Virus record (IMG/VR): IMGVR_UViG_3300025141_000424
Coordinates: 1-32,899 of that record
DNA: 32,899 bases
Strand: one strand, 5' to 3'
DNA from: a virus
Position numbers and translations under genes: made by a program. The notes beneath the pieces are model-generated. The model was not told where the DNA came from. It made no database searches and was given only the letters and a program-made list of their open reading frames with translations. This document shows, piece after piece, positions 829 through 32,899 of this stretch (the stretch's first letter is position 1; the number at the start of each line of letters is the position of its first letter).

Positions 829-1899
829 ATGAAAATTGTTTTATCTAGAAACATTACCGGCCTAACACGTGATATAACATACAATACGACTAGCAAGAGT
901 GTTGATACGAATTGTGATACATTCTGGAAAGATGATCGTGTAATTTGTCTCATGAAATATGTAAAAATGAATGAATACAAAAGACTAGATTTAAAGTATA
1001 AGCAGTTGTTAAAAACATTAAAAATAGAAGATTCAAATATAAACTGGGGATCATTGCTTGGCAAGCAAAAGATACAATACAAATTCATCAAATTGATGGA
1101 TGATATAGGTAATATTGATTTTGATGAATATTCGAAAAAGCATTTACCAAATCGTCTTAAGCTATTTGAAAGATTGTGTAATTTTGCATACAAAGATGAA
1201 AAGAAAAGAGCTCTAGTTTATAATCATAATAAAATATTAACCGGTCGTGCTAGTGTAGAACGTGGCTTTAATTTAATGACGTTAAAGAAGGCTGAACGGA
1301 AAAACTTGCAATCAATGCAACAAGGTGGAGCAATAATAGAGATTGACATTAAATCTTTAGAGCCTCGCTTATACTTATTTTTGATTAAAAATATTGATGT
1401 CGAGGATGCTTATTCACATTTACTTACAAATGTATTAGGATATGCTGTTGGTGATATTGAAAGAAAAGATATAAAATTAGCAATGATATCCATTCTATAT
1501 GGAGCTAGTGTGCATAAAATTAGAAAAATAACAAAACTTAAGACAAGTGATATAAAGAAAATACGAGAATACCTAGACGTAGAAGCATTGCAAAATAAAG
1601 TAATTAAAGAGTTTGATGAAAAAGGTTACTTTGAAAATGCTTACGGTAGAAAAATATATTCAAAAAATGCACCGGTAAATTATTATATTCAGTCTACTGC
1701 TGCTGATTTTTCATGTTTAGTCTATGAACAACTATTAAGTAAGCTTCCTGAATACGGTATTAATTTAATCGGTGTTATTCATGATGCTATAATCTTAGAT
1801 GTTAGAAAAGACTTGATAAATGATGTTTTATCGATAACTTCTTGTGTGGAACCGATAATTAATAACACAGCATATTTTAAAACGGAAAGACATAGCTAA
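829..1899 (+). CDS. polA: Family A DNA polymerase, short form: palm and fingers only
   Basis: A 356-residue polymerase that carries the family A catalytic motifs but is far shorter than Pol I or T7 polymerase. TGRAS (138-142) leads into the fingers. Motif A is EIDIKSLEPR (171-180; metal ligand D173). Motif B is RKDIKLAMISILYG (212-225; K216, Y224). A QSTAAD stretch (288-293) matches the family's Q-G-T-A-A-D. Motif C is VIHDAIILDV (316-325; D319), where the residue after the Asp is Ala, not the usual Glu. The first ~130 residues match no exonuclease motif I can see, so 3'-5' proofreading is absent or on another gene, as I recall for the split polymerase of phage RM378. A strong AAAAAAGGAG precedes the ATG. 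It overlaps the next start by one base and opens the replication cluster. Confidence 0.85.
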   Translation: MKIVLSRNITGLTRDITYNTTSKSVDTNCDTFWKDDRVICLMKYVKMNEYKRLDLKYKQLLKTLKIEDSNINWGSLLGKQKIQYKFIKLMDDIGNIDFDEYSKKHLPNRLKLFERLCNFAYKDEKKRALVYNHNKILTGRASVERGFNLMTLKKAERKNLQSMQQGGAIIEIDIKSLEPRLYLFLIKNIDVEDAYSHLLTNVLGYAVGDIERKDIKLAMISILYGASVHKIRKITKLKTSDIKKIREYLDVEALQNKVIKEFDEKGYFENAYGRKIYSKNAPVNYYIQSTAADFSCLVYEQLLSKLPEYGINLIGVIHDAIILDVRKDLINDVLSITSCVEPIINNTAYFKTERHS

Positions 1900-9512: not shown

Positions 9513-10256
9513 ATGAGAATAACGAGAAGCCAGCTCAGAAATTTAATTCTTGAAGCTACAATCGATTATATAGATAATGACGGCAAAAGAATAGCAGTAA
9601 ATGCTGACGGTGTATTGGGAAACAATAATTTAAGATTGCAGTTACAAGGTTACTACAATGATGTCTATGATGAAAAACTTAAGCACCAACAGAAGATTAT
9701 GAGTGGGCAGTATCCAGATCTAGCTAAAGAGCTAGCTCATAAAGGGTCATATTATCAAGCAATGGATGACTTTAAAGAGTACTTGGAAAATACAGTAACT
9801 TCTAAATATGGCAACAACTCTACTATTAAATTTGGAGAACAAGATTTTATTGATGAACAACCAAGTGAATTTATAACATTGAGTGACATTATTTCAAATA
9901 TAGACTCAGATAAGATCAAGTACAAATCTAAATTTAGAGATTTTCCCGATCCAAAGAGAGGAGAATCTAGTGTAGATTATAATGATCATGAACCTTTAGA
10001 GTTCAAGGCTGAACCTATTACACCTGAAGACGAGTTGCAGCAAGCACAGCGACTATCAGATATTGAACAGCGAAGACGAGAGCTAGGCAGTGATTTAAGT
10101 TTTATGTTTGATAAAACAGTCCCCCGGGCTGACTATCCAGATGAGACAACTACACCAAAAGGTTATAAGAGTCTAGAAGATTTAATGGCAGAAGAAGAAC
10201 CGCCTACTTGGATGAATAATAATTCTGACAAAACTGAGCCTCCGCAAGGTCGATAG
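9513..10256 (+). CDS. Unknown protein with N-terminal capsid-targeting-like tag
   Basis: 247 residues from the ATG at 9513; an in-frame TTG at 9495 lies inside the hairpin and is rejected. It begins MRITRSQLRNLILEA, the tag shared with six other proteins of this window, whose end fits a T4-type prohead protease site (I-L-E before A). The rest is hydrophilic and helical with no recognised domain: a Lys/Gln-rich stretch (40-100), acidic segments, and a Pro/Thr-rich C-terminus (PPTWMNNNSDKTEPPQGR). There are no cysteines or membrane segments. I infer a packaged internal head protein whose function is unknown. The TAG stop abuts, with zero spacing, the stop of the convergent minus-strand gene. 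Confidence 0.7.
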   Translation: MRITRSQLRNLILEATIDYIDNDGKRIAVNADGVLGNNNLRLQLQGYYNDVYDEKLKHQQKIMSGQYPDLAKELAHKGSYYQAMDDFKEYLENTVTSKYGNNSTIKFGEQDFIDEQPSEFITLSDIISNIDSDKIKYKSKFRDFPDPKRGESSVDYNDHEPLEFKAEPITPEDELQQAQRLSDIEQRRRELGSDLSFMFDKTVPRADYPDETTTPKGYKSLEDLMAEEEPPTWMNNNSDKTEPPQGR

Positions 10257-10703
10257 CTAATAACTGCTTGTCCCAAGCAACTTATCAATCAATGGGAGTC
10301 TGACACCCCAGTTTAGATGTTGATTTTTTCCCATGTGATGTTCGTAATGCCACGGGAGCCATTTTTTGCCCCAGCTAGTACTGATATGCGAAATTTTGTG
10401 AAGTATATAATAAGAAGTAACTGACCATAAAACTGCTACAAAAAAATACGGCGCAAATAAAAGTACTGGTATGTGACAAACTAAAGTTAAAATAAGAGAC
10501 AAAACTTCAAATTTACTACTAAGTAGATTCTCATAACTTTTGTCATACATTTTATTTTTTCTAGAAATATTATGATGACTTTTAAAATGATTTCGAAATA
10601 GTTTTTTAAATCGTTTTTTATCATGTAGTAAGTATCTATGGGCTATATACTCAAGTATATGTCCGTATAACCAGCCTAATGCAAACTGCAATATAGCTCC
10701 CAT
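10257..10703 (-). CDS. Fatty-acid-hydroxylase-superfamily membrane protein
   Basis: 148 residues on the minus strand. The histidine clusters of membrane di-iron hydroxylases/desaturases are present in order: HRYLLH (22-27), HFKSHH (39-44), LHKISH (101-106, H102 and H106), and HYEHH (119-123) followed by GKNQHLNWG (125-133). Hydrophobic segments lie at about 4-20, 66-90 and 90-102, so it should be integral to the membrane. The family (sterol desaturase / fatty acid hydroxylase / carotenoid hydroxylase) adds hydroxyls or double bonds to lipids with two irons and oxygen. At 148 residues it is near the minimal length. AAGGTGG (10711-10717 on the complement) precedes the ATG. It is the only gene against the grain, which suggests an acquired host-derived gene. 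Substrate unknown; remodelling of host membrane lipid or pigment is inference. Confidence 0.75.
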   Translation of the reverse strand: MGAILQFALGWLYGHILEYIAHRYLLHDKKRFKKLFRNHFKSHHNISRKNKMYDKSYENLLSSKFEVLSLILTLVCHIPVLLFAPYFFVAVLWSVTSYYILHKISHISTSWGKKWLPWHYEHHMGKNQHLNWGVRLPLIDKLLGTSSY

Positions 10704-10806: not shown

Positions 10807-11409
10807 ATGCGTTGGAAATTTGAACAGTCATCACTAATTAAGGAGATTGAGTTGCATAGAAATCCTGTAATCATTAAAGTTAATAAATTCACAGAAGATT
10901 CAGCAAAAGAATTTTCTGATAAAATGGCACTAGCACATAATACTGGACAAAAAATAATTCCTGTCGTTATTGATTCTTATGGTGGGAGAGTATACTCGCT
11001 TCTATCAATGATATCAGAGATTAAGAATTCTGAACTTCCTGTTGCTACAATTGTCCAAGGAAAAGCTATGAGTTGCGGTGCTATATTGTTTTCTTTTGGC
11101 GAAGAAGGATTAAGATACATGGATCCTGATGCAACTGTCATGATCCATGATGTGTCAGCAGGTGCTATAGGCAAAATAGAAGAGATGAAAGTATCAACAG
11201 AAGAAGCAGAACGATTAAACAATAAAGTGTTTAAAATGATGGCTAGGAATATCGGAAAATCAGATGAGTATTTTCTTAAAAAAATTCATACAAAAGGGCA
11301 TGCAGATTGGTATCTTGATGCTAAAGAAGCAAAGAAAATCGGCTTGGCAAATCAGCTAAGAGTACCAATACTTTCAATTAATGTCAGTGTTGATGTAGAT
11401 TTTGAGTAA
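10807..11409 (+). CDS. ClpP-like serine protease (S14 fold)
   Basis: 200 residues, the length of a ClpP monomer. The core begins PVVIDSYGGRVYSLLSMISEI (52-72), the oxyanion Gly region of ClpP. The nucleophile is S89 in GKAMSCGAIL, the His is H114 in VMIHDVSAG, and the Asp is D167 in ADWYLDAKEAKKIGL, so the triad is intact. The ClpP-type N-terminal loop that docks ClpX/ClpA is not evident. ClpP-like enzymes in phages may mature the prohead or act on host proteins; this gene lies between two genes carrying the putative capsid-targeting tag, so a maturation role is tempting but unproven. AAAAAGGAG precedes the ATG, and a TATAAT without a -35 box lies upstream. Confidence 0.82.
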   Translation: MRWKFEQSSLIKEIELHRNPVIIKVNKFTEDSAKEFSDKMALAHNTGQKIIPVVIDSYGGRVYSLLSMISEIKNSELPVATIVQGKAMSCGAILFSFGEEGLRYMDPDATVMIHDVSAGAIGKIEEMKVSTEEAERLNNKVFKMMARNIGKSDEYFLKKIHTKGHADWYLDAKEAKKIGLANQLRVPILSINVSVDVDFE

Positions 11410-11450
11410 GTTCTTGTCAGGTGTAATAATTATAGAAAGGAGCAATATTT

Positions 11451-12140
11451 ATGAAGTTAACACTGAAACAACTCAGGCGACTAATAAGTGAGTCTACAAA
11501 TCTAGATCGAAAAATTATTGCATTTTATCCAGGGCGATATCAGCCCATGGGCAGGCATCATAAGGCAACTTATGACTGGATGGTTTCGAAATTTGGAGAA
11601 GAAAACTCATTCATAGTTACATCAGATAAGGTTTGTATGCCTGACTCACCTCTTTGCTTTAGAGATAAAAAACAAATCGCTATGGCAATAGGTGTTCCTG
11701 AAAGTGCAATTCAACAAGAAAAAATCATGTATGCTCCCGCAATGTTTAGTGTCATGAAAGATAAAGATCCAAATGACTATGCAGTTGTAATTGTAGTAGG
11801 TGAAAAAGACATGAAGCCTTCTTTAGATCCAAAGACAGGTAAGGTTGAGCCACCTAGATTTGTCAAGGGAAAATCTCTAGACGGTTTTAAGCGTGATGGA
11901 ACTCCAAAATATTTTAAGTCTTTTGTCGAAGGTGAGCCCTTAGAAAGTTTTGACAAACATGGGTATGTCATTGTTGCACCCCATCAAGAAATTGATCTTG
12001 GTGGTAAAGAAATGTCCGGATCTAGTCTTAGAGCATTTTTACCAGACGCTGTGGATCAGGACTTCGAAGACATATTAGGCATAACAGATCCTGAAACAAT
12101 TGAAATGATGCGACAACGAATTAGAGGTGATAATGGATAA
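11451..12140 (+). CDS. HIGH-family nucleotidyltransferase with N-terminal capsid-targeting-like tag
   Basis: 229 residues. Residues 1-14 are the tag MKLTLKQLRRLISE, followed by S15, the expected P1' position. The enzyme starts at about 21: IIAFYPGRYQPMGRHHKAT (22-40) is the nucleotide-binding segment of the NMN adenylyl-/cytidylyltransferase superfamily, with GRHH in place of the usual HxGH. VVIVVGEKD (112-120) is the second strand, and MSGSSLRAF (188-196) is the I-S-G-T-x-x-R motif. These enzymes transfer AMP or CMP to a phosphate acceptor (NMN, pantetheine phosphate, sugar or glycerol phosphate); the acceptor cannot be read here. An insert of about 50 residues (125-175) separates the two halves. 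I recall T4-like marine phages with CTS-tagged proteins of this type. AAAGGAG precedes the ATG; the stop overlaps the amidase gene. Confidence 0.8.
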   Translation: MKLTLKQLRRLISESTNLDRKIIAFYPGRYQPMGRHHKATYDWMVSKFGEENSFIVTSDKVCMPDSPLCFRDKKQIAMAIGVPESAIQQEKIMYAPAMFSVMKDKDPNDYAVVIVVGEKDMKPSLDPKTGKVEPPRFVKGKSLDGFKRDGTPKYFKSFVEGEPLESFDKHGYVIVAPHQEIDLGGKEMSGSSLRAFLPDAVDQDFEDILGITDPETIEMMRQRIRGDNG

Positions 12141-13026
12141 AGTATTTTATAATCAAAGCTCAGCTTCAAATCTTGGATGGGATCCGTCTTGGTTTGGTGA
12201 AAAAGAGTTTGACGATGATCTAACAAAAGCAATTGCTAAATGGCAAAAAAAGAATGGATTGAAAGCTGATGGGTTATGTGGTCCCGGGACTTACAGAAGG
12301 GTATATACCGAACGTGAAAATGATATAGGTCGATATATACCTTTCGATGTTAAGAAAAAGGACAAAGCATACATCGTGCACAGAGGATCATTCCTGCCCA
12401 TCAAATGGGATAAAGTTGTATTGTGGGATGATGATGGAGGCTTAAAGTTAGGTGCAGGAAAATACACACCTTACTTTACTGAGAGAAAAATAGATTTTTT
12501 TGTCAATCACTGGGATGTATGTCTTAATAGTGAAAGCTGTGTAAGAGTCTTAAACAAAAGAGGTATATCAGTTCATTTTGCAATCGATAACGATGGAACA
12601 ATATATCAGCTTATCGACACAAACCATGCTGCATGGCATGCCGGATCTAAAAAGTGGAATCATAGTTCTATTGGCGTTGAATTAACAAACGCATATTATC
12701 CTAAGTATCAGAACTGGTATACAAAAAATGGCTTTGGTGAACGTCCGTTAATATCTGATGAATACGTGCACGGCCGAGAAATGGATCCCTTCTTAGGGTT
12801 TTACGATGTACAATTAGAAGCACTCAAAGCTCTTTGGGCAGCATGTCATGAAGGAATTGGCATACCGCTAAAATGCCCATTAGATAATGATGGAAATACT
12901 CTTAAGAAAGTTTCAACATCAGCTGCAGCAAATCGTTTTAAAGGTTTTGTGAGTCACTATCATTTAACTAAACGAAAAATTGACTGTGCGGGATTGGATA
13001 TAAATAAGATGCTAAAAGAAATCTAA
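12133..13026 (+). CDS. Endolysin: N-acetylmuramoyl-L-alanine amidase with peptidoglycan-binding domain
   Basis: 297 residues from the ATG at 12133, preceded by AGAGGTG; it overlaps the previous gene by 8 nt. Residues about 20-58 form a peptidoglycan-binding module (DLTKAIAKWQKKNGLKADGL, then CGPGTYRRVY). The amidase_2/T7-lysozyme-type catalytic domain follows: FFVNHWDV (122-129) with zinc ligand H126, HFAIDNDGTIYQLIDTNHAA (148-167), WHAGSKKWNHSSIGVEL (168-184), and SHYHLTKRKIDCAG (274-287), where H275 or H277 and C285 complete the zinc site. It would cut the bond between muramic acid and the peptide stem to lyse the host. There is no signal peptide, so export needs a holin or tail delivery, and no clear holin is adjacent. 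A module-plus-amidase order is common in endolysins of Gram-negative hosts' phages. Confidence 0.9.
   Translation: MDKVFYNQSSASNLGWDPSWFGEKEFDDDLTKAIAKWQKKNGLKADGLCGPGTYRRVYTERENDIGRYIPFDVKKKDKAYIVHRGSFLPIKWDKVVLWDDDGGLKLGAGKYTPYFTERKIDFFVNHWDVCLNSESCVRVLNKRGISVHFAIDNDGTIYQLIDTNHAAWHAGSKKWNHSSIGVELTNAYYPKYQNWYTKNGFGERPLISDEYVHGREMDPFLGFYDVQLEALKALWAACHEGIGIPLKCPLDNDGNTLKKVSTSAAANRFKGFVSHYHLTKRKIDCAGLDINKMLKEI
12999..13006 (+). promoter_or_regulatory. Possible T4-type late promoter ahead of the virion block
   Basis: TATAAATA is identical to the T4 late promoter core. It lies in the last codons of the endolysin gene, 103 nt upstream of the first large structural gene. In an AT-rich genome the 8-mer occurs by chance: other copies fall inside genes near 14126 and 23699. 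Confidence 0.2.
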
Positions 13027-26549: not shown

Positions 26550-27002
26550 ATGATTATTTTAGGGCTTTTAATTTTTACTGTCAATGCTAGTGATCCAAAA
26601 GTATCAAGTTGGATATCTACGCCTGACATTCTTTTATGTAGTGATAGCAGTGTCAACATTAAAGATCTTTCTATTGCAATTGATTTCTGGGAGCAGAGAG
26701 GTTTTAGGTTCGGAAAAATTAGTAAAGAAGATAATTGCGACGACTATCATCGTGGCTATATTAAATTTATAGGCGATGAAGATCTAGAAAGCGGATATCT
26801 GGGAATGACTGAAATCTACGAATATGGCAATCAACATAAGACAATAACATCAGCATATATTGAGATATCTGATAGGCAGTCAGACAATCTAATATTGCTA
26901 GCACATGAGTTAGGACATTCGTTGGGTTATAACCATGGGCACAATAAGAATAGCGTAATGTATAGTAATATAAAACAAGTTAATATTAAAATAAGGAGAT
27001 AA
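26550..27002 (+). CDS. Exported matrixin-like zinc metalloprotease (metzincin)
   Basis: 150 residues. The N-terminus MIILGLLIFTVNAS is a short signal peptide, with likely cleavage after A13. The catalytic site is AHELGHSLGYNHGH (118-131): H119-E120-x-x-H123-x-x-x-x-x-H129, the metzincin zinc motif with its Gly, followed by the Met-turn SVMY (M137). Two Cys (C30, C63) could form a disulfide in the periplasm. It is a minimal catalytic domain without a propeptide or substrate-binding module. It could be exported from the infected cell to cut envelope or surface proteins, or be part of the virion; neither is shown by sequence. AAAGGAG and a TATAAT element lie just upstream; 1 nt separates it from the epimerase gene. 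Confidence 0.8.
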   Translation: MIILGLLIFTVNASDPKVSSWISTPDILLCSDSSVNIKDLSIAIDFWEQRGFRFGKISKEDNCDDYHRGYIKFIGDEDLESGYLGMTEIYEYGNQHKTITSAYIEISDRQSDNLILLAHELGHSLGYNHGHNKNSVMYSNIKQVNIKIRR

Positions 27003-30653: not shown

Positions 30654-32219
30654 ATGAAAATAACAAGAAAACAATTAAGAAGATTAATAGAAGGTTCAGT
30701 TAGCAAGCGCGGTGACTATGTTATGCCTGTTGAAGATCCGATTGAAGATCCGATTGCAGGTTTAGACTATAATGATGAACAAAAGCCAAAAATAAAAATG
30801 ATGGCAATGTCAGATGATGAGCAAAATCAAGTGCATGCAAATTTTATTGCAGATATAGGCGGGCATGAAGATACTGATCGATTTGGCGCAGATACATTTA
30901 GTAAAAAGGTACAAGCATATGATTTAGACGTTAATCTGTTAAAAAAGGATATGGATCTAGATAGTGCAATTGCCAAAGCTTGTCAATTCTGGATATACGA
31001 GCACAAGGATGAGCTATCATATTATGATCATATTGATCAAGATAATTCTAGAAAGTATGCTGACTATATGATAGAATTATATGGTGGTGATCAAGCTGTT
31101 GCTAATAAAATTAAAGTGCATACGACAGCAGTTTTAGACAAAAGAATTAAAAGCCTCATCAAAATATCAAATTCTGCAGCACCTGTGCCTTCTGTTGATG
31201 AAAAAGTTGCGAAATATGAGGCTGCCAAGAAGTTATTTTCAACAGATCATAATAACCCAATAGTCGAAGAGCATATACTTTTTAAGCTTTACAGCGTTTT
31301 GTATCCGTTTTATTTTGATTGGAAATCATACTATGAAGAAGAACAAGGTTATGACATGAGTAATCCAGAACATGTAAAGCGTTATAAAGAGAATATTTCA
31401 ACATTTAAGGAAGGTAAAGTTAGACTAACAAGAGGGAAATTAAGAAGATTAATAGAATCGTTTATCGCTGGAGATGATGCTAGTGACCCGGATAATGTAC
31501 AAACTGCTAAAAAAGCTTTTCGAGGTCTGAGCAAGAAAGCAGCAAAGTCCATTGACGATTACAGAACCAGCGTTGGAAAATCTAAAATAGGCCGAGACAT
31601 GGTTTTTTCTAAGGATCCTGAAACAGCACAACAAGGTATTGAGTTAGGCTTTGATAGAGCTCCGGAGGAATTTACAGATTATGAAAAGACTGCAAAGGAT
31701 ATCCCAAGGATAGATCGAAGGACAGATAGACCCTTGGATAAGCATGACGCACTTCTTAAGGCAAAATACGGTCAAGGGCAAGGCTTAGGCGAAGTTTATA
31801 GTTTAGTAGTCAAAGACAACACGGGAAAAGAAGTTTTAATACCTATTATCGATGATCACTCATCGGAAGTAAAAAAGCGCGGTGAAGGCATACCTGAAAT
31901 GTCAATGTTTGATATATTAGATACGTATCGACGCGTTAAACACGCAGAGATGCTAATTAAAAATTCTGACTTAGAGAATGATGACTTTTCAATTCCCCCT
32001 GAACAGTATGGTTATAGCCTGCTCCAGTACAATGCAACTGATGATCTAGAGGGCTATTACATTGATTTATTAGAAGATCATGTTTGGGAAGTATTATCAT
32101 CCCCACCATATAATTACGATTATAAAGATGTACAAAACTTTCCCTACCATAAAATGAGAATCGAACCTCATCATAAAGAATTAGAAGCCGCTTTAACTTT
32201 TGCATCCGGATTGGCGTAA
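30654..32219 (+). CDS. Unknown protein with two capsid-targeting-like tags (possible polyprotein)
   Basis: 521 residues. The N-terminus MKITRKQLRRLIEGS is one tag (L-I-E before G). A second copy, VRLTRGKLRRLIES, sits at residues 256-269 (L-I-E before S). The segment between (16-255) is helical and acidic. The part after (270-521) is another unrecognised domain with DPETAQQGIELGFDRAPEEF and VYSLVVKDNTGKEVLIPIID. A short DNA repeat gives the sequence VEDPIEDPIAG near residue 26. The simplest reading is a fusion of two once-separate tagged proteins, still cleavable at the second tag. The stop overlaps the next start (TAATG). Confidence 0.7.
   Translation: MKITRKQLRRLIEGSVSKRGDYVMPVEDPIEDPIAGLDYNDEQKPKIKMMAMSDDEQNQVHANFIADIGGHEDTDRFGADTFSKKVQAYDLDVNLLKKDMDLDSAIAKACQFWIYEHKDELSYYDHIDQDNSRKYADYMIELYGGDQAVANKIKVHTTAVLDKRIKSLIKISNSAAPVPSVDEKVAKYEAAKKLFSTDHNNPIVEEHILFKLYSVLYPFYFDWKSYYEEEQGYDMSNPEHVKRYKENISTFKEGKVRLTRGKLRRLIESFIAGDDASDPDNVQTAKKAFRGLSKKAAKSIDDYRTSVGKSKIGRDMVFSKDPETAQQGIELGFDRAPEEFTDYEKTAKDIPRIDRRTDRPLDKHDALLKAKYGQGQGLGEVYSLVVKDNTGKEVLIPIIDDHSSEVKKRGEGIPEMSMFDILDTYRRVKHAEMLIKNSDLENDDFSIPPEQYGYSLLQYNATDDLEGYYIDLLEDHVWEVLSSPPYNYDYKDVQNFPYHKMRIEPHHKELEAALTFASGLA
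30732..30755 (+). repeat. Short tandem repeat, 12 nt x 2
   Basis: GAAGATCCGATT occurs twice back to back (30732-30743 and 30744-30755), giving E-D-P-I twice near the N-terminus of the 521-residue protein. It looks like a recent slippage or duplication. Confidence 0.8.
31419..31460 (+). repeat. Internal copy of the capsid-targeting-like tag
   Basis: This in-frame segment inside the 521-residue gene encodes VRLTRGKLRRLIES (residues 256-269). The DNA carries the stretch AAATTAAGAAGATTAATAGA, nearly matching the 5' ends of the genes at 30654 and 32219. There is no ATG or Shine-Dalgarno here, so it is not a separate start. Confidence 0.75.
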
Positions 32220-32899
32220 TGAAAATAACAAGAAAACAATTAAGAAGATTAATGTCAGAATCATTCATTGGCGCACCTGATGGAACAGTTTACACACCCA
32301 AGACAAAGAAGGCTCATAGCGAAGAAGGTGAGGCTTTTGGTGGTGGGTCTGCTGATGAGATGGATATTCCTGTAGTATACGGTGAAGATCACACCAAAGA
32401 GGCAACGCCTAAACTTTACGGTATTTTGACTCGTAACTGGCATGAGATACATAGTTTTCACAAGAAAGGACCGTATATATATAAAACGCTTATGAATCCA
32501 GATACAGATCCGGACAATAAAAAATATTTTCTATCTCTCCTTTGGCAGAGCGAAATTATTACAGCCAAGGCACTTGAAGACGCAAGCCTTGAGATTGACC
32601 TGCTAACGTCACCAGACTTTAAAGATTTTAGGGATCAGTCAGCAGAAAGACTAGAGAAAAAACATCAAAGAGAAATATTTGGAGACATTAAAAAACAGCG
32701 CGAGCTTTATAAAAACCCAGAATATGTAAAGTGGGCAAAGAAACAAATAGACAAAGTTGTTGATGGTGGTTTTGAGTATTTCAAAGATGCAATCGAAGAG
32801 CAATTCTTTTATCACATGCATGATCACAAAAGACAAAAGCTATCTAATTTTGATTACAATCCAGACGAAGGAATACATCCGGAAAATTTTGCATCTCTG
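32219..32899 (+). CDS. Unknown protein with N-terminal capsid-targeting-like tag (3' end outside window)
   Basis: The frame is open for 227 codons to the window edge. It starts MKITRKQLRRLMSES (M-S-E before S) at an ATG that overlaps the previous stop by one base. The body has a Gly/Thr-rich early part (GAPDGTVYTPKTKK), then helices rich in Lys/Glu (RLEKKHQREIFGDIKKQREL) and His near the visible end (FFYHMHDHKRQ). No domain is recognised. It is the fifth consecutive tagged gene of the operon; the operon may continue beyond the window. Confidence 0.7.
   Translation, partial: MKITRKQLRRLMSESFIGAPDGTVYTPKTKKAHSEEGEAFGGGSADEMDIPVVYGEDHTKEATPKLYGILTRNWHEIHSFHKKGPYIYKTLMNPDTDPDNKKYFLSLLWQSEIITAKALEDASLEIDLLTSPDFKDFRDQSAERLEKKHQREIFGDIKKQRELYKNPEYVKWAKKQIDKVVDGGFEYFKDAIEEQFFYHMHDHKRQKLSNFDYNPDEGIHPENFASL

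What the first reader, a model, noticed from the sequence alone, without database searches (positions are those of the whole stretch)
11451..12140. An enzyme carrying the tag: nucleotidyltransferase predicted to be packaged in the head
The tag precedes a HIGH-superfamily nucleotidyltransferase (GRYQPMGRHH and SGSSLRA motifs). If the tag works as proposed, the phage delivers an AMP- or CMP-transferring enzyme with its DNA, comparable in principle to the injected T4 Alt ADP-ribosyltransferase. A pre-made enzyme could act on host NAD or another cofactor before phage transcription starts. The usual HxGH is changed to GRHH.
Basis: partly seen in the sequence, partly recalled or inferred. Interest (0 to 1): 0.66.

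Follow-up and report, generated by a model that had tools for sequence, protein, structure and literature searches.

The report
Phage enzyme with head-packaging tag
A marine virus of bacteria encodes a small nucleotide-transferring enzyme whose first 14 residues look like an address label that loads proteins into the virus head and is then cut off, so the enzyme is probably injected into the host with the viral DNA, as related enzymes of ocean cyanophages seem to be.

Summary
ORF 11451-12140 starts MKLTLKQLRRLISE|S and continues as a HIGH-fold nucleotidyltransferase (AlphaFold pLDDT 90). Seven window ORFs carry the tag, against none in 20 shuffles. GRHH is not a local mutation: GxHH is the consensus of a large uncultured viral family (about 82 of 88 homologues). 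The head-packaging reading gains indirect support. The tag ends in [LI]xE, the T4 gp21 cleavage motif, and keeps it when its position slips. Of 16 tag-bearing contigs over 100 kb, 14 encode gp21. In 12 of those 14, a small ORF just after gp21 has a tag-like N-terminus. The ClpP-endolysin gap that holds this enzyme holds six tagged ORFs in a 273-kb relative with gp21. Related cyanophage cytidylyltransferases (T4-GC190; profile E 1e-7) were detected in virions (PMC3037559; another, ORF154, in PMC10665884), and those read here start with a T4-type targeting sequence (MKKFSAFLNE|A; T4 IPIII MKTYQEFIAE|A). Against it: 40 of 88 homologues start directly at the enzyme, including one in a tag-bearing phage; no virion data exist for this tag; substrate and activity are unknown. 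Most relatives are fused to ligase-like domains. Verdict: probably head cargo, a new variant of a known kind.

The parts
11451..12140 (+). Tagged HIGH-fold nucleotidyltransferase ORF, 229 aa
   Evidence: AF2 model pLDDT 90.2, pTM 0.84
11436..11442 (+). Shine-Dalgarno-like AAAGGAG that supports the ATG at 11451, hence the tag being translated
   Evidence: sequence
11451..11492 (+). N-terminal tag MKLTLKQLRRLISE; predicted cut after Glu14 (I-S-E|S)
   Evidence: tag profile score 33.9 bits; helix 5-19 in the model; [LI]xE conservation
11529..11561 (+). PGRYQPMGRHH motif (HxGH position, here GRHH)
   Evidence: alignment A2; family consensus GxHH
11793..11810 (+). VVGEKD motif; Gly117, Lys119 and Asp120 invariant in the family
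12015..12035 (+). SGSSLRA motif (S-x-S/T-x-x-R, C-terminal nucleotide-binding motif of the superfamily)
9513..10256 (+). Tagged ORF MRITRSQLRNLILE|A, 247 aa, unknown function
10807..11409 (+). ClpP-fold protease just upstream; conserved left border of the cargo interval
   Evidence: PF00574 E 1e-25; 56% to L102 ClpP
12133..13026 (+). Endolysin (amidase_2 plus peptidoglycan-binding domain), overlaps the enzyme's stop; right border of the cargo interval
   Evidence: PF01510 E 2e-17; 48% to L102 and 58% to L085
28072..29427 (+). Tagged ORF MKITRRQLRRLME|A, 451 aa
29449..29937 (+). Tagged ORF MKITKEQLRKLILE|A, 162 aa
29939..30646 (+). Tagged ORF MKITRRQLRRLISE|A, 235 aa
30654..32219 (+). Tagged ORF MKITRKQLRRLIE|G, 521 aa, with a second internal tag copy at 31419 (VRLTRGKLRRLIE|S)
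32219..32899 (+). Tagged ORF MKITRKQLRRLMSE|S, runs off the contig end

Best explanation
The ORF encodes a head-cargo enzyme of a T4-like marine phage. The first 14 residues (MKLTLKQLRRLISE) act like a T4 capsid-targeting sequence: an amphipathic helix that binds the prohead core. The phage's gp21-type prohead protease (inferred; not in this 33-kb fragment) then cuts after Glu14 at I-S-E|S, leaving a 215-residue enzyme inside the head to be injected with the DNA. The mature part is a HIGH-fold nucleotidyltransferase closest to NMN and pantetheine-phosphate adenylyltransferases, of a viral clade with GxHH in place of HxGH. It probably transfers a nucleotide to a small phosphorylated cofactor or nucleic-acid end, in partnership with a covalent ligase-like nucleotidyltransferase that is fused or adjacent in most relatives. 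Shown by sequence: tag, motif, fold, synteny, partner domains. Shown experimentally by others, for related cyanophage enzymes only: presence in virions. Inferred: cleavage, packaging and injection of this protein, and its chemistry.
For: (1) In 344 tags chosen on residues 2-10 only, 98% carry [LI]xE within the first 25 residues. Of 41 without Glu14, 36 keep [LI]xE at a shifted position, against 2-15% in control windows. T4 gp21 cleaves after L/I-X-E (PMC9026906). (2) gp21 (PF03420) is found in 14 of 16 tag contigs over 100 kb and in 0 of 14 control genomes. (3) In 12 of those 14, the first or second ORF after gp21 has a tag-like N-terminus, often the best score in the module; in a 484-kb phage tagged ORFs flank gp21. 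(4) Synteny: RNR-ClpP-[six tagged ORFs]-endolysin in G009, a 273-kb contig with gp21, matches RNR-ClpP-[this enzyme]-endolysin here. (5) Capsid proteins of tag phages share a conserved LLRE|A/S near residue 63, the same consensus. (6) T4-GC190 cytidylyltransferases, found in S-SM1 virions (PMC3037559), are homologous to this family (hhalign E 1e-7). Those read here start MKKFSAFLNE|A, MKKFSTFISE|A or MITFHVFITE|A, like T4 ipIII MKTYQEFIAE|A. A cytidylyltransferase (ORF154) was also found in S-CREM2 virions (PMC10665884). (7) In relatives the gene lies 9-18 kb from gp21 in most contigs with both. Short N-terminal extensions contain [LI]xE in 25 of 28, and the partner domain is preceded by [LI]xE|GG in 38 of 44.
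Against: 40 of 88 homologues start directly at the domain. The only other tag-bearing genome found with the enzyme (G003) encodes it without the tag and far from its head module. No virion proteomics exist for any phage with this tag, and the literature search for tag strings found nothing. gp21 and head genes lie outside the 33-kb window, so their presence in this phage is inferred. The post-gp21 ORFs are one homologous family, so (3) is one evolutionary observation, not twelve. Authors of PMC10665884 warn that virion detection may reflect CsCl carry-over. The first catalytic His of HxGH is absent, so activity is unproven.
Confidence: 0.66

Rival explanations
1. The enzyme works only inside the infected cell (for example NAD salvage or RNA-end repair late or early in infection), and the tag serves another purpose such as recruiting it to a phage assembly or replication site; no packaging takes place.
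For: Many homologues lack any N-terminal extension; a tag-bearing phage has an untagged copy; weak similarity to NadM-type NMN adenylyltransferases that phages use for NAD salvage (PMC9503650).
Against: The tag carries the gp21 cleavage motif with position-independent conservation and recurs next to gp21; related cyanophage enzymes are found in virions; no NadV or other NAD-salvage gene was recognised in the window.
Confidence: 0.2
2. The protein is packaged but catalytically dead: the HIGH fold with GxHH has been kept as a structural core or scaffold-filling protein.
For: First His and Gly of HxGH are absent across the clade; T4 internal proteins and core proteins include non-enzymes (PMC9026906).
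Against: The other nucleotide-binding motifs are strongly conserved over 30-50% identity: GR-x-QP, His37, GxKD, S-x-S/T-x-x-R; the domain is nearly always coupled to a second nucleotidyltransferase.
Confidence: 0.1
3. The tag-enzyme junction in this contig is an assembly accident or recent chance fusion without function.
For: No second homologue with this exact tag was found among about 90 homologues.
Against: Single continuous ORF with a Shine-Dalgarno sequence; six other tagged ORFs in the same contig; the syntenic slot holds tagged genes in a relative.
Confidence: 0.04

Closest known systems
T4-GC190 cytidylyltransferases of T4-like cyanophages (Syn19, S-ShM2, S-SM1 and others)
   Same: Homologous HIGH-fold domain (hhalign prob 94%, E 1e-7); in most subfamily members read here an N-terminal 10-residue T4-type CTS ending [LI]xE|A; detected in S-SM1 virions (PMC3037559); often next to a DUF6267 ligase-like gene.
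   Different: TxGH instead of GxHH; another tag type; extra N- and C-terminal regions; identity too low for BLAST recognition. P-HM1's and RaK2's members have no such N-terminus.
T4 internal proteins IPII/IPIII and Alt (capsid-targeting sequence plus gp21 cleavage)
   Same: Short N-terminal propeptide ending in L/I-X-E with Ala/Ser after the cut; enzyme as injected cargo (Alt).
   Different: Tag sequence is unrelated at residue level (MKITRRQLRRIIKEE against MKTYQEFIAE) and longer (14 against 10); enzyme class differs; packaging not shown.
NadM-type and archaeal NMN adenylyltransferases (2qjt, 1f9a, 4yp7); pantetheine-phosphate adenylyltransferase (3pxu)
   Same: Fold (VIA Z 10-11), GRF-x-P and S-x-S/T-x-x-R motifs; best profile matches in the PDB (E 7e-4 and 9e-4 for NMN adenylyltransferases).
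   Different: HxGH replaced by GxHH; large insertion around aa 120-170; identity about 15%; activity untested.
Microcystis phage Mel-JY01 'cytidylyltransferase like protein' (WWT39297.1)
   Same: Closest named homologue (30%), GIHH, gene 9.8 kb from the prohead protease.
   Different: 639 aa, fused to a KxDG ligase-like domain; different N-terminus.

Membership tests
HIGH superfamily nucleotidyltransferases (PF01467 fold) | Rossmann-like HIGH fold | tested here: met
   AF2 model pLDDT 90; PPAT/NadD/NadM/NMNAT at VIA Z 9-11, 150-160 residues, rmsd about 3.4
HIGH superfamily nucleotidyltransferases (PF01467 fold) | HxGH catalytic signature | tested here: not met
   GRHH; only the last His and the preceding GR-x-QP are kept; GxHH in most of the clade, HxGH only in the L001-L005/L007 branch. 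It is therefore described as a derived HIGH-fold homologue, not filed as a canonical HxGH enzyme
HIGH superfamily nucleotidyltransferases (PF01467 fold) | C-terminal S-x-S/T-x-x-R motif | tested here: met
   SGSSLR in the window, MSGTxLR consensus, Arg194 invariant
NMN adenylyltransferase (NadM type) | Sequence membership by curated profile | tested here: not met
   No Pfam or NCBIfam match for the window protein; only weak family-profile similarity, E 7e-4
NMN adenylyltransferase (NadM type) | ATP:NMN adenylyl transfer | not testable with these tools
   needs a biochemical assay
T4-type capsid-targeted internal proteins | Short N-terminal propeptide ending in L/I-X-E | tested here: met
   RLISE|S in the window; 98% of 344 tags carry [LI]xE; shifted-site control
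T4-type capsid-targeted internal proteins | gp21-type prohead protease in the same genome | tested here: inconclusive
   Not in this 33-kb fragment; present in 14/16 large tag contigs including syntenic G009
T4-type capsid-targeted internal proteins | Propeptide shared with core or other head proteins | tested here: inconclusive
   Tag-like N-terminus on the ORF after gp21 in 12/14 tag genomes, but the role of that ORF is unknown and this phage's head genes were not seen
T4-type capsid-targeted internal proteins | Presence in the virion | not testable with these tools
   no virion data for any phage with this tag
T4-GC190 virion cytidylyltransferases | Sequence homology | tested here: met
   hhalign A3 against A9: prob 94.3, E 1e-7, 158 columns
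T4-GC190 virion cytidylyltransferases | TxGH signature and T4-like 10-residue CTS | tested here: not met
   GRHH and a different 14-residue tag

The most novel reading that the evidence does not exclude
A large uncultured branch of T4-like marine phages uses one portable 14-residue label (MKITRRQLRRIIKE|) to load many different proteins per genome into the head. A nucleotidyltransferase plus a covalent ligase-like partner would be a conserved, injected two-enzyme kit, separated by gp21 cuts at [LI]xE|GG, that repairs or modifies nucleic-acid ends or cofactors the moment the DNA enters.
Probability: 0.35. Interest if true: 0.82.

Novelty: new variant of a known kind. Interest (0 to 1): 0.62.

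Why it matters
If the tag is a capsid-targeting signal, the injected proteome of many uncultured marine phages can be read straight from sequence, and hundreds of 'hypothetical' genes become candidate early effectors. It would also explain why cyanophage virions contain a cytidylyltransferase: it is deliberate cargo with a T4-style propeptide, part of a conserved pair with a ligase-like protein (DUF6267). That makes a testable question out of what these phages do to host cofactors or nucleic acids before their own transcription starts.

Tried and rejected
Chance match of the tag: rejected (0 hits in 20 shuffles and in the reversed sequence). GRHH as a one-off catalytic mutation: rejected. ClpP-fold neighbour as the head protease that cuts the tag: considered, not favoured, because tag genomes carry a separate gp21 in the head module and the ClpP gene lies with RNR and endolysin. 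Recurrence of each relative's own N-terminus on other proteins of its locus: a gapless comparison gave mostly noise, with only weak leads (L004 MHLNFDNLVDLILNE). Literature search for the tag strings: no paper. Pfam, PHROGs and NCBIfam for the window enzyme: no match. PDB profile search with the ligase-like partner: no match; Foldseek gave only weak RNA-ligase hits (2vug, 1xdn, E 0.03-0.05), so 'ligase-like' rests mainly on KxDG / EGhV / K-hTG motifs. Cargo survey: of the 150 longest tagged proteins few hit Pfam (L,D-transpeptidase, SLT, GH19, RNase_T); no further nucleotidyltransferase.

Full report
Observation. The ORF at 11451-12140 is real and starts at an ATG behind AAAGGAG, so the tag is in frame and likely translated. 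Its first residues, MKLTLKQLRRLISES, are shared by six other ORFs of the window (9513, 28072, 29449, 29939, 30654, 32219), and a degenerate second copy lies inside the 30654 ORF. A tag profile finds seven starts over 20 bits in the window, none in 20 codon-block shuffles or in the reversed sequence, and two in 854 kb of loci that encode relatives of the enzyme.

What the enzyme is. The window protein has no Pfam, PHROGs or NCBIfam hit, but relatives at 30-47% identity hit PF01467, cytidylyltransferase-like. An AlphaFold model from a 29-sequence alignment has mean pLDDT 90.2 and pTM 0.84, with the tag as helix 5-19 ahead of a Rossmann-like domain. Structure comparison places it among HIGH-fold adenylyltransferases without preference: PPAT Z 11.2, NadM Z 10.3, archaeal NMNAT Z 10.3, NadD Z 10.6. 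By profile, the best PDB matches are NadM (E 7e-4) and archaeal NMNAT (E 9e-4), then PPAT. Of 88 homologous ORFs in viral contigs, about 82 have GxHH or SxHH at the HxGH position and only the L001-L005 and L007 branch has canonical HxGH. GRHH is therefore a clade signature; the last His, GR-x-QP, GxKD and S-x-S/T-x-x-R are kept.

Company it keeps. Most homologues are 550-950 aa fusions with a second domain that has KxDG, EGhV and K-hTG motifs of covalent nucleotidyltransferases (ligases): either a GGxxGHMxHP family or PF19782 DUF6267. Foldseek gives weak RNA-ligase hits for that domain and a PDB profile search finds none, so the ligase label is motif-based. In cultured cyanophages the same two parts are neighbouring genes, DUF6267 (T4-GC71) and cytidylyltransferase (T4-GC190), present in hundreds of records. 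The window's enzyme stands alone; no partner is in this 33-kb fragment.

What the tag is. A degenerate DNA pattern found the tag at ORF starts in well over 100 stretches of marine viral contigs before the scan hit its limit. To avoid circularity, 344 tags were chosen on residues 2-10 alone: 98% then have [LI]xE within the first 25 residues, mostly ending at residue 14. In the 41 without Glu14, 36 keep [LI]xE at a shifted position, against 2-15% in control windows. Conservation thus follows the motif L/I-X-E, the cleavage motif of T4 gp21 (PMC9026906). Fourteen of 16 tag contigs over 100 kb contain gp21 (PF03420) and none of 14 control genomes does. In 12 of these 14, the first or second ORF after gp21 begins with a tag-like sequence such as MSKITKNDLKGIVKECLIEILAEG. 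These ORFs are one family, so this counts as one independent observation. In the 484-kb phage LR756508 tagged ORFs flank the protease. The major capsid proteins of these contigs share a conserved LLRE|A/S about 63 residues in. I infer that the tag is a capsid-targeting sequence of a type different from T4's.

Why this enzyme is probably cargo. In contig G009 (273 kb, with gp21) the order RNR end - ClpP - six tagged ORFs - endolysin matches the window's RNR - ClpP - tagged enzyme - endolysin, with 60, 56 and 48% identity for the borders; the enzyme sits in a slot for tagged cargo. T4-GC190 cytidylyltransferases are homologous to it (hhalign E 1e-7) and were detected in purified virions of S-SM1 (PMC3037559); a cytidylyltransferase (ORF154) was also detected in S-CREM2 virions (PMC10665884), whose authors themselves caution about carry-over. 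I read the N-termini of this subfamily: MKKFSAFLNE|A, MKKFSTFISE|A, MRSFLTFLTE|A, MKKFSAFLSE|A, MITFHVFITE|A, against T4 ipII/ipIII MKTYQEFIAE|A. Positions 4, 7, 8 and 10, which amber-suppressor work in T4 implicated in targeting and processing (PMC9026906), agree. The S-SM1 protein itself was not read here, and the P-HM1 and RaK2 members have no such N-terminus. In relatives of the window enzyme, 25 of 28 distinct short N-terminal extensions contain [LI]xE. The ligase-like domain is preceded by [LI]xE|GG in 38 of 44 cases, whether internal or N-terminal, while a few versions start directly with M-GG. The gene lies 9-18 kb from gp21 in most relatives with both.

Against. Forty of 88 homologues start directly at the domain, and the one other tag-bearing genome with the enzyme (G003) encodes it untagged and more than 100 kb from gp21 on its contig. 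It is not decisive, because fusion proteins and other propeptides may do the same job in those lineages. No virion data exist for this tag, gp21 of this phage has not been seen, and activity with GxHH is untested.

Mechanism, with likelihoods. Tag is a capsid-targeting propeptide: about 0.75. This enzyme is packaged and trimmed: about 0.66. It is catalytically active: about 0.8. It acts as an NMN-type adenylyltransferase: about 0.35. One testable coupling is that the ligase-like partner uses NAD+ and the nucleotidyltransferase recycles the released NMN; this is speculation.

Verdict. A new variant of a known kind: virion-carried cytidylyltransferase-like enzymes are already documented in cyanophages, but the tag, the GxHH clade and the cleavage-site architecture were not found in the literature searched here.

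Noticed in passing
window 30654-32219, second tag at 31419: A 521-aa tagged ORF carries a second tag copy (VRLTRGKLRRLIES) in the middle, as if two tagged proteins were fused; similar internal copies occur in L033, L037, L107 and L120.
   Followed up: partly
L085:4989-5840: A tagged ORF carries a DnaQ-like exonuclease domain (WIFFDTETMG); other tagged proteins in the 150-protein survey match L,D-transpeptidase, SLT and GH19 domains: further candidate head-delivered enzymes.
   Followed up: partly
L186:6690-9401: One relative of the enzyme is a 904-aa fusion that also contains a SET methyltransferase-like domain (PF00856 E 2e-8), unusual for a phage.
   Followed up: no
window 26550-27002: Small secreted-looking matrixin-type metalloprotease (PF00413 E 3e-7) with HELGHSLGYNH motif.
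   Followed up: no
window 10257-10703 (-): Fatty-acid-hydroxylase-like membrane protein (PF04116 E 1e-11) on the opposite strand, between two tagged-gene positions.
   Followed up: no
L235 14269/16261 and L236 14110/16082: Two tandem major-capsid-like ORFs with nearly identical N-termini in each of two large tag-bearing contigs.
   Followed up: no
L002-L005, L001: Stand-alone ligase-like proteins begin MITFAQFLLE|GG or MMTFKQFLLE|GG, very close to the T4 internal-protein targeting sequence; they may themselves be injected.
   Followed up: partly
window 829-1899 with 2521, 3428, 5549: A DNA polymerase A C-terminal-type ORF sits next to gp32-, RecA/UvsX- and DnaB-like genes, a mix unlike T4's family B polymerase.
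   Followed up: no
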